The notes under the pieces: generated by a model | What the model was told of the DNA's origin: nothing | What the model saw: the letters and a program-made list of their open reading frames with translations, nothing else | Database searches by the model: none | Assembly (NCBI RefSeq): GCF_964355755.1 | Contig: NC_092675.1 | Location: 4,746,312 to 4,810,311 of the forward strand | Direction of reading: 5' to 3' | DNA length: 64,000 nt | DNA from: Antedon mediterranea | Taxonomy: Eukaryota; Echinodermata; Crinoidea; Comatulida; Antedonidae | Shown here: piece after piece, positions 17,136 through 20,100 of the stretch | Layout of the letters: each line of letters opens with the position of its first letter | Numbering within the stretch: the stretch's first letter is position 1 | Translations under genes and position numbers: made by a program

Positions 17136-20100
17136 ATGTCCGCGCGAGGCGGTGCAAAGAAACGGTCAGGTAAAAGTATTTCTCGGTCTGCTCGTGCAGG
17201 AGTTCTTTTTCCAGTAGGCCGAATGCATCGTTATCTTCGTACGAATACTGTCAAGTACAGGATCGGAATGGGAGCACCGGTGTACTTAGCTGCTGTTATC
17301 GAGTACTTAACAGGTTAGTATGGAGCCTAGCTTTATGTTGTTAAAGCTAATACATAAGACATAATACGCCAATATAGTTAATTTTGTTAGTTGCATAAAA
17401 ATAATATTATTATTAAAAATACAGTAATTATAATAAATAAATAAATAAATAGAAATATTAATATTGATTGTAGGTGTTATGCGCGATTTGCGCAATTTAA
17501 AATTGCGCAAAAAATTTTCTTGCGCAATATTAAATTGCGCAATTTGAAATTGCGCAAGAAAATCCTTGCGCAATTTCAAATTGCGCTGCACAATTTGTAA
17601 ATTGCGCAAGATAGTTCTTGCGCAATATGACACCTTTGCGCAATTTGAAAACGAACTGTTTGTTATTTTTATTATTGTACTCATTTGTTGTTGAGAATGG
17701 TACCGAAAGGTTAGTCTTTTTTGTCATTAAATTTAATTTTTAAGTTAAATATTAAACGTCTAATAATTCGTAATAATTATTGTTTCTAAAAAAAATCCAA
17801 CCGTTATTAGTCTTATTAATCGTCATTAGTACTGATATTTGAATTGAAATTATTATATTACTATTGGTATTTATTTATGCCTTCTCCTCATATTATGTGT
17901 GAATATGGTATTTTATAGAACCATTGGGAATTCGAGATTTTTTTATTCGGAAAAAAATTTCGGGAGGGAGGCTCCCGGGAGGGTAAGGAAATGCGATATT
18001 ATCTTTAATTTTGAATCATTCTTAGAAATTACTAACAAAATATGGGTGTGCATGATTTCACAATCTGTCGAAAAACCTTGCGCAATTTGCAGATTACTTG
18101 CGCAATTTAATACGTTGTTTGCGCAATTTGAAACACATGTTTCAATTTGAAATTGCGCAAGAAAAACCTTGCGCAATTTCAAATTGTGCAAATCGTTCAA
18201 ATCGCGCATAACATAAACATTCAAATGGGAAAATTATATATGCACGTATGTATTATGTGTCAGATGCATATTTTCAGAATGGAAATGGAATTCTTTTGAT
18301 TTAGTTTTATTTAATAGCATATTATTTGATGTTTTTCTTCTTCTTTGTTTTTAGCGGAGGTGTTAGAATTGGCAGGAAATGCAGCAAGAGACAATAAGAA
18401 GAGTCGAGTTACACCACGGCATATTCTGTTAGCAATTGCCAACGATGAGGAACTTCATCAGGTATGAGATGTCATCAAAGTTTGTTCAGCTGGAACCTTA
18501 ACCCCCCCCCCCCATCAGATAGGCCATCAGATTAAGTTTAGCACTTACATTTTTTAGACTTGCACCCTTTCCCCAACCGCCCTATTTAAAATGGATCTTT
18601 ATAATAACACTTTTTGATTGACCAATGGTAAGCATGTTTGGGAATTAATAGCATCAACTCTTGCTTTTATATTATTATATGTTTTTGTTACCATTATTTT
18701 ATTTGTTTCTAGCTTCTAAAAAATGTTACAATTGCAAGTGGTGGCGTGATACCTCGTATCCACCCTGAACTTCTACAGAGAGGAAAACGTGGTTCAAAGA
18801 GCAAAATCATTTACGATGGTGCAACTCGACCATCCCCAGCTCCTCCGAAAAAATTGAAAATGCCTCCAAAAAAGATGTACGTAAAGAAGGCAGCGGCGGC
18901 GGCAGCAGCAGCAGCTGCAAACTCCAAAAGTTCTGGAGGAAACTCAAACGATAAAGGAAAGGTTACTGCAGCTCTAAAGAAGGGTGGACTGGCTATTTTA
19001 TCAGAGAAAAGGCTTTTTCTGGGACAAAAGGTAAATTTCACATAAATCTGTATCATTATAGTGACCAGTAGATGAATTGGCTTTGAATATTTATTGGGTA
19101 TAGAAAGGGGACAAGCTGGCTCCATACGGTGGAGTCCATATCCATTTTTTGGTCCCCTCTTTTACATACAGTACTGGATCTTCCCCTTTTCGTACATGAT
19201 AGTTTCTGAATATTTTAGACATTTATAATATGTAAAATATCTATTGTTCCTTTCTGTCATGAATGATGAAACAACACATTAACACTGTTATAAATCAAAA
19301 AAATCTAAAAAATCTTTTAAACCTGATGCTTTAAGTTATTTTTCAAATCTTTCAGCTAACTGTAATTCAGTCAGACATAGCAAGCATCCCAGTAGATGCA
19401 ATTGTAAATCCTACTAATGATAGCTTCTACATGGGAGGTCAAGTTGGTAAGTCTTAAATCAATTCAATAATGAACAAAACCATTGGAATACCGAGTATGG
19501 AATAGGGTGAAATGATCAACAAGAACAATACACATATTCGCATGTTATTATACTTTTGCTGTTGTTTGATAAGCCGTTGTGACATTGTAAACAATCAGGC
19601 ACATATCAAAAGTAATCAAACTTTCAAATAACCATTGTTGCCATCACTAAATAATAAAACTATTTCTTTCCAAAATTAAATAACAAATCTTGATCTATTT
19701 TTTAGGTACTGCACTTGAAAAGGCTGGTGGAAAAGAATTCATGAATGAAGTTGACAAGTTAAAGGAAAGTCAGAAAACATTAGATACAGCAGGAGGTTTG
19801 TTCTATGTGTTACTAGTCTAGTATCAAATAATACACTAAATAATGGTAATATATGAAATAATTATTGTGAATTATATATATAATATGTATATTAGTTTGA
19901 AAATAGAGCAATACTGCCTATCCCATGATAGGGTAACAAAATATGTAGGACAACGGAAATTTAATACATAGTAATTTTTTTTTTGGATATCCCTATTTAG
20001 GGGGCACCAGTGAATCAAATGGGTCAATATACTGTATGTCCAACCATTGTCCAACTATTGAGGAGACATCCTTTTGGTCCTGAAGGTGTCCCCATAATAA

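What the first reader, a model, noticed from the sequence alone, without database searches (positions are those of the whole stretch)
17475..18213. Foldback element built from GCGCAATT palindromes in macroH2A intron 1
The arms are not simple inverted repeats. They are arrays of a short perfect palindrome (GCGCAATTTGAAATTGCGC) separated by 5-10 bp links, with a distinct TGTTATGCGCG terminus. In DNA or RNA this can form many local hairpins as well as one large foldback. I know of no named family with this layout. Seen in sequence: ends, palindromes and the second copy. Inferred: transposon status.
Basis: partly seen in the sequence, partly recalled or inferred. Interest (0 to 1): 0.75.

Follow-up and report, generated by a model that had tools for sequence, protein, structure and literature searches.

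The report
Jumping DNA built from C/EBP-type sites
A short "jumping" DNA element with roughly 470 complete copies in this animal genome sits in an intron of the macroH2A gene, and its two arms repeat, about twenty times over, the exact 8-base word bound by the gene regulator C/EBP, so each jump may plant a cluster of regulatory sites.

Summary
It is one of about 470 complete, mostly young copies genome-wide. Of 46 copies examined, 34 have a perfect 4-bp target duplication (1.4 expected), with a TR-NNNN-YA target preference, and paralogous empty sites exist. It is therefore a non-coding DNA transposon (MITE-like), not a local satellite. Its TGT...ACA ends, 4-bp duplications and target palindrome match the Ginger2 (retroviral-integrase-like) group best, but no transposase-bearing partner was found.

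Re-reading the arms: the repeated unit is a perfect octamer, TTGCGCAA, 20 times in each consensus at 15/16-bp spacing. The unit around it (TGCGCAATTTGAA) is 12/13 identical to the element's own terminus (TGCGCGATTTGAA), so the arms look like multiplied transposase-binding sites. TTGCGCAA is also the reported C/EBPalpha/beta consensus; the genome encodes two C/EBP-like proteins, and this family supplies an estimated 70% of its 11,438 TTGCGCAA sites. Binding by either protein is inferred, not shown. The layout class (internally repetitive, foldback-like arms) is known, for example Galileo; this combination appears new.

The parts
17475..18213 (+). element copy 1 (core type A), 739 bp, in the first coding intron of macroH2A
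   Evidence: ends and arms read directly; type A assignment. Flanks TGTAGG / TAAACA keep the TR/YA context, but the 4-bp duplication is not intact (TAGG vs TAAA)
17475..17490 (+). left terminal repeat TGTTATGCGCGATTTG
17488..17643 (.). left arm array: 9 perfect TTGCGCAA octamers (17488, 17503, 17520, 17535, 17550, 17566, 17602, 17618, 17636)
17651..18070 (+). non-coding stretch used as the type A core probe (its last ~88 bp are shared with type B; the type-specific part is shorter)
   Evidence: no Rfam match
18078..18176 (.). right arm array: 5 perfect octamers (18078, 18098, 18119, 18153, 18169)
18198..18213 (-). right terminal repeat (CAAATCGCGCATAACA on +)
25096..25975 (-). element copy 2 (core type B), 880 bp, 21 perfect octamers, 4-bp target duplication TATG
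25092..25095 (.). target duplication TATG, left of copy 2
25976..25979 (.). target duplication TATG, right of copy 2
44869..45024 (+). paralogous empty site: matches the joined flanks of another copy (locus L022), element absent and one TACA/TATA present
17136..17315 (+). macroH2A first coding exon ([13 protein letters not shown]...AAVIEYLTG); insertion lies in the intron that follows
   Evidence: Histone PF00125, weak
18355..18461 (+). macroH2A second coding exon ([36 protein letters not shown])

Best explanation
The element is a copy of a young, high-copy, non-coding DNA transposon (MITE-like, median ~800 bp). It is integrated in trans by a DDE integrase-type transposase, most likely Ginger2-like and cut-and-paste, which makes 4-bp staggered cuts at TR-NNNN-YA palindromes. 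Steps shown: fixed ends, dispersal, 4-bp duplications, palindromic target preference, empty sites, and two core types between shared arms. Steps inferred: the transposase class, the excision mode, and the role of the arms. The arms are arrays of TTGCGCAA octamers at 15/16-bp spacing (about 1.5 helical turns). They look like many extra copies of the terminal recognition motif (terminus TGCGCGATTTGAA, array unit TGCGCAATTTGAA), so their most likely job is to load many transposase dimers and bring the ends together. Because TTGCGCAA is also the reported C/EBPalpha/beta consensus, each insertion also delivers a dense cluster of potential host bZIP sites, as in the macroH2A intron.
For: Copies: the 16-bp terminus occurs 523 times forward and 516 reverse, against ~50 for the reversed control. 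Duplications: 34/46 perfect 4-bp plus 2 of 5 bp; 1.4 expected. Target: T at -6 in 41/46 and A at +6 in 40/46 (p<1e-12), R at -5 and Y at +5 in 44/46 each, TSD mode YA(T/A)R. Empty sites: two clean cases, L031 against L073 and L022 against the window at 44869; others have indels nearby. Youth: type A copies 0.6-4.7% from consensus. Shared arms, different cores: types A and B share 214 bp left (96%) and 209 bp right (98%) with unrelated cores. Ginger2 match: TGTNR ends, 4-bp duplications, RTATAY targets, 50-180-bp TIRs (PMC2836005). Arms: 20 exact octamers in each consensus, no single-mismatch variants, spacing mostly 15 and 16. Terminus-unit homology: 11/12 in the best window, reached in 11 of 20,000 shuffles. 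Octamers diverge less than spacers: 0.95% vs 3.07% in A, 0.39% vs 1.05% in B. C/EBP: TTGCGCAA is the reported C/EBPalpha/beta consensus (PMC10941009); two host bZIPs match C/EBP structures at E 2e-13 and 1.5e-12. Repeated subterminal transposase sites are a proposed convergent trait (PMC3573991).
Against: No transposase-bearing copy with these ends was found, so the Ginger2 assignment rests on termini and target sites only. Window copy 1 lacks an intact 4-bp duplication (TAGG vs TAAA), and 10 of the 46 copies lack an exact 4- or 5-bp one. The lower divergence of octamers weakens when only same-length arms are compared without gaps: significant for the A left arm (p=0.001), not for the other three arms, and reversed (not significantly) in the B right arm. 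C/EBP binding is an exact sequence match to a reported consensus; no binding or expression data exist here.
Confidence: 0.68

Rival explanations
1. The arms are kept mainly for host C/EBP-type bZIP binding: a selfish element using a host activator to stay in open chromatin, or a spread enhancer module, rather than for transposase binding.
For: 20 exact C/EBP consensus octamers per consensus; two host C/EBP-like bZIPs; 11,438 octamers genome-wide against 3,269 for the reversed word, about 70% estimated to lie in this family; precedent of MITEs spreading E2F sites in Brassica (PMC12595863).
Against: The array unit resembles the element's own terminus, which transposase binding explains directly. 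No expression or binding data.
Confidence: 0.25
2. Solo LTRs of an LTR retrotransposon (TG...CA ends, 4-6-bp duplications).
For: TGT...ACA ends and 4-bp duplications also fit LTRs; the genome is rich in LTR-type integrases.
Against: The inverted terminal arms are long (67 bp at 98.5% in B, ~139 bp at 82% in A), which LTRs do not have. Of the unpaired ends followed up, those on C1 are truncated, interrupted or diverged copies, and one on C10 is a copy with a nested insertion; none is half of a full-length retrotransposon. Termini occur as inverted pairs ~0.8 kb apart.
Confidence: 0.03
3. A local satellite or palindrome array with no fixed ends.
For: Tandem Repeats Finder sees the arms as tandem repeats.
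Against: Fixed ends, 4-bp duplications, dispersal over the large contigs and empty sites.
Confidence: 0.01
4. The same transposon moved by a transposase of another superfamily that also makes 4-bp duplications (for example Sola1, Chapaev or Academ).
For: No transposase found, so the class is inferred from termini and target sites.
Against: From general knowledge those groups do not have TGT...ACA ends; only Ginger2 matches termini, duplication length and target palindrome together.
Confidence: 0.2

Closest known systems
Ginger2/TDD DNA transposons (PMC2836005)
   Same: TGTNR termini, 4-bp target duplications, palindromic AT-rich target with R and Y just outside the duplication, TIRs of tens to over a hundred bp
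   Different: no transposase found; target is broader and longer (TR-YATR-YA); arms are arrays of TTGCGCAA, not described for Ginger2 in the passages of that paper that were read
Galileo and Foldback-like elements of Drosophila (PMC3573991)
   Same: long, internally repetitive terminal arms of variable length; internal repeats proposed as secondary transposase-binding sites
   Different: Galileo is a P-superfamily element; here 4-bp duplications and TGT...ACA ends; repeats are 15/16-bp-spaced octamers rather than ~210-bp tandem repeats
MITEs that spread E2F sites in Brassica (Henaff et al. 2014, via PMC12595863)
   Same: non-coding transposons carrying a transcription-factor motif to many places
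   Different: here ~17-20 perfect sites per copy in ordered arrays; motif is the C/EBP consensus; animal host
IS481EU (PMC10045372)
   Same: TNT...AYA or TGT...ACA ends, 4-bp duplications in some families
   Different: reported only from parabasalids; also makes ~15- and ~25-bp duplications, which were not tested for here

Membership tests
Ginger2 | termini TGTNR | tested here: met
   TGTTA at both ends of nearly all 46 copies examined
Ginger2 | 4-bp (or 5-bp) target duplications | tested here: met
   34/46 perfect 4-bp, 2/46 5-bp; shuffle mean 1.4
Ginger2 | target preference RTATAY | tested here: inconclusive
   R at -5 and Y at +5 in 44/46 each, TSD mode YA(T/A)R; compatible but broader, with extra T/A at -6/+6
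Ginger2 | TIRs ~50-180 bp | tested here: met
   67 bp at 98.5% (type B), ~139 bp at 82% (type A)
Ginger2 | autonomous copy with Gypsy-like integrase/transposase | tested here: inconclusive
   no longer copy with these ends found; rve hits are numerous and could not be linked to these ends
Ginger1 | CCGG or CCGT target duplications | tested here: not met
   none of the listed duplications is CCGG/CCGT
MITE (non-coding, non-autonomous DNA transposon) | short, non-coding, TIRs, target duplications, high copy number | tested here: met
   (only short chance reading frames in the consensus)
Foldback/Galileo | long internally repetitive terminal arms | tested here: met
Foldback/Galileo | 7-9-bp duplications of FB/P-type elements (general knowledge) | tested here: not met
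   no exact 7-, 8- or 9-bp duplications in 46 copies
hAT | 8-bp duplications | tested here: not met
   0/46
LTR retrotransposon (solo LTR) | no long inverted arms; some full-length two-LTR copies | tested here: not met
   long inverted arms; no two-LTR copy among the followed-up unpaired ends
C/EBP-bound regulatory element | contains C/EBP consensus sites | tested here: met
   TTGCGCAA x20 per consensus, consensus per PMC10941009
C/EBP-bound regulatory element | occupied by C/EBP and alters expression | not testable with these tools
   needs binding or expression data

The most novel reading that the evidence does not exclude
A transposon whose end-recognition motif coincides with the C/EBP consensus has multiplied that motif into ordered arrays and scattered them, so that one recent family now holds most perfect TTGCGCAA sites of the genome. 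Its copies act as C/EBP-responsive modules or sinks (including one inside macroH2A), and host C/EBP may compete or cooperate with the transposase at the ends.
Probability: 0.22. Interest if true: 0.7.

Novelty: new variant of a known kind. Interest (0 to 1): 0.45.

Why it matters
If the arms bind C/EBP, a single young transposon family has supplied about 70% of the genome's perfect C/EBP octamers in ready-made clusters. That would be a clean natural case for testing whether transposons rewire, or titrate, a conserved bZIP regulator. Independently, arms built by multiplying the element's own terminal motif give a testable model of how foldback-like elements arise, and the 4-bp TR-NNNN-YA target adds data on integrase-type (Ginger2-like) transposons.

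Tried and rejected
Inner-junction searches for a third core type: only mutated A/B copies. Exact 16-bp ends followed by something else: MITE copies, truncated copies, or a 49-bp minimal copy. 12-bp ends with other continuations: no excess over control. One facing pair of TGTTATGCGCGC, 7.9 kb apart on C5, looked like a partner but is an unrelated element with 990-bp inverted repeats, in which the 12-mer is internal (the repeat continues outwards past it). Unpaired ends: nested insertion in L072; truncated copy beside a reverse-transcriptase fragment in L071; 39-bp end beside a satellite in L073; B-type copy with an insertion in L074. Host name: no COX1 in the assembly, so the species was not identified. 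8-bp (hAT) duplication, suspected at copy 2, is not supported over 46 copies.

Full report
Observation. The element described at 17475-18213 is present with exactly those ends: TGTTATGCGCGATTTG at the left and its reverse complement at the right. Between them lie two arms rich in GCGCAATTT palindromes and a central ~400 bp without them. A second copy lies at 25096-25975. Palindromes of the type TTGCGCAATTTNAAATTGCGCAA occur 12 times in the window with up to 3 mismatches, against none in 100 shuffles. The host gene is macroH2A: histone-fold exons flank copy 1, followed by the H2A C-terminal and macro domains.

It is a transposon. The window belongs to a 354-Mb assembly in which 11 contigs hold nearly all the sequence. 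The 16-bp terminus (up to 2 mismatches) occurs 523 times forward and 516 times in reverse, against about 50 for a control pattern, giving roughly 470 complete copies by estimate, mostly as inverted pairs about 0.8 kb apart. In 46 distinct copies, 34 have a perfect 4-bp target duplication and 2 a 5-bp one, while shuffled flanks give 1.4 on average. The target has a palindromic preference, T-R-NNNN-Y-A: T at -6 in 41/46, A at +6 in 40/46, purine at -5 and pyrimidine at +5 in 44/46 each. Paralogous empty sites were found by joining flanks and searching the held DNA: L031 against L073 and L022 against window 44869-45024 are clean, with one copy of the 4-bp target and no element; others have small indels near the site. 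Window copy 2 has the duplication TATG; window copy 1 does not have an intact one (TAGG against TAAA), through mutation or exchange between copies.

Family structure. Copies fall into two core types. Type A (window copy 1) and type B (window copy 2) share 214 bp of the left arm at 96% and 209 bp of the right end at 98%, while the cores between are unrelated. Type A copies are 0.6-4.7% from their consensus, so the family is young. A 49-bp minimal copy, terminus against terminus with TATA on both sides, lies at C3:25663591-25663639; it shows that nearly everything between the termini can be lost, though whether it jumped in that form is unknown.

What the arms are. The consensus of each type contains exactly 20 TTGCGCAA octamers and no one-mismatch variants, mostly spaced 15 or 16 bp apart, that is about one and a half helical turns, so neighbours lie on opposite faces of the helix. 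The unit resembles the element's own terminus: TGCGCGATTTGAA at the end, TGCGCAATTTGAA in the array, 12 of 13 identical; the best 12-base window (11/12) is reached in 11 of 20,000 shuffles of the terminus. Aligned copies show fewer changes in octamers than in spacers, 0.95% against 3.07% (A) and 0.39% against 1.05% (B). An ungapped re-test on same-length arms supports this clearly only for the A left arm and shows no such effect in the B right arm, so this is supporting evidence, not proof.

Mechanism. Best reading: integration in trans by a DDE integrase-type transposase with a 4-bp stagger, with arms made of multiplied terminal recognition sites that raise transposase loading and end pairing. 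This matches the proposal made for Galileo, where internal repeats are held to be secondary transposase sites and a convergent trait (PMC3573991). Shown: ends, duplications, target, dispersal, empty sites, array anatomy. Inferred: transposase class, excision mode and arm function.

Which transposase. Ginger2 elements have TGTNR ends, 4-bp duplications, RTATAY targets and 50-180-bp TIRs (PMC2836005). The present family meets the first two and the TIR length, and is compatible with, though broader than, the third. Ginger1 (CCGG/CCGT), hAT and FB/P-type duplications are excluded by the data. The transposase itself was not found: no third core type at the inner junctions, no other continuation of the 16-bp or 12-bp ends beyond mutated, truncated or chance cases, and integrase-domain hits too numerous to link. 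A partner with a diverged terminus, or one absent from this individual, remains possible. Membership in Ginger2 is therefore likely but unproven.

C/EBP. TTGCGCAA is the reported consensus of C/EBPalpha/beta and the DNA in their solved complexes (PMC10941009). The genome encodes at least two bZIP proteins with the C/EBP-type basic region NN(I/V)AVRKSR, matching C/EBP structures at E 2e-13 and 1.5e-12. The octamer occurs 11,438 times in the genome against 3,269 for the reversed word (that control word has one more CpG, so it is only a rough yardstick). With ~470 copies and a mean of ~17 octamers per copy, about 8,000, or 70%, are estimated to lie in this family. Outside the two elements the 64-kb window has none. 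That MITEs can spread transcription-factor sites is known from Brassica (PMC12595863). Actual binding or regulation here is untested.

Novelty. Internally repetitive arms, MITEs and transposon-borne factor sites are each known. Not found in the papers read: an integrase-type (Ginger2-like) MITE whose arms are ordered arrays of its own terminal motif, with that motif equal to the C/EBP consensus. Repbase and Dfam could not be consulted, so prior cataloguing is not excluded. The rating is a new variant of a known kind.

Noticed in passing
L073 and L077 (C1:14178000-14195500): Satellite array of ~1.15-kb units, roughly 84-93% alike (two neighbouring copies 99%), ending beside a 39-bp truncated right end of this family (L073:6699-6737).
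   Followed up: partly
L088 (C5:15027690-15035790): Unrelated large element with ~990-bp inverted repeats 99% alike and several broken reading frames without Pfam match.
   Followed up: partly
L072 (C10:8313200-8321000), about 1783-6160: A type A copy interrupted by a ~4.4-kb nested insertion with CAGGGCATCA...TGATGCCCTG ends and an apparent 8-bp duplication.
   Followed up: partly
L080 (C3:25663591-25663639): 49-bp minimal copy of the family, terminus against terminus, flanked by TATA on both sides.
   Followed up: partly
L048 and L075: Two short, diverged relatives that share flanking sequence outside the termini; perhaps an old insertion inside another repeat that was then copied.
   Followed up: no
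L020 (C6:5731614-5734782): Two type B copies in direct repeat with the same right flank, apparently a local tandem duplication.
   Followed up: no
window 14767, 21302, 36187, 37173, 37942: Dispersed short pairs of a 21-bp unit (ATCACTACCATATTTRRRCAC-like), seen by Tandem Repeats Finder; similar units also in L051.
   Followed up: no
window 45120-45697: 135-bp tandem repeat, 4.3 copies at 98%; the unit length is a multiple of three, so it might be coding (not checked).
   Followed up: no
C1:920068-938518 in the genome: TTGCGCAA occurs about every 1.5 kb, suggesting another tandem array that contains the octamer.
   Followed up: no
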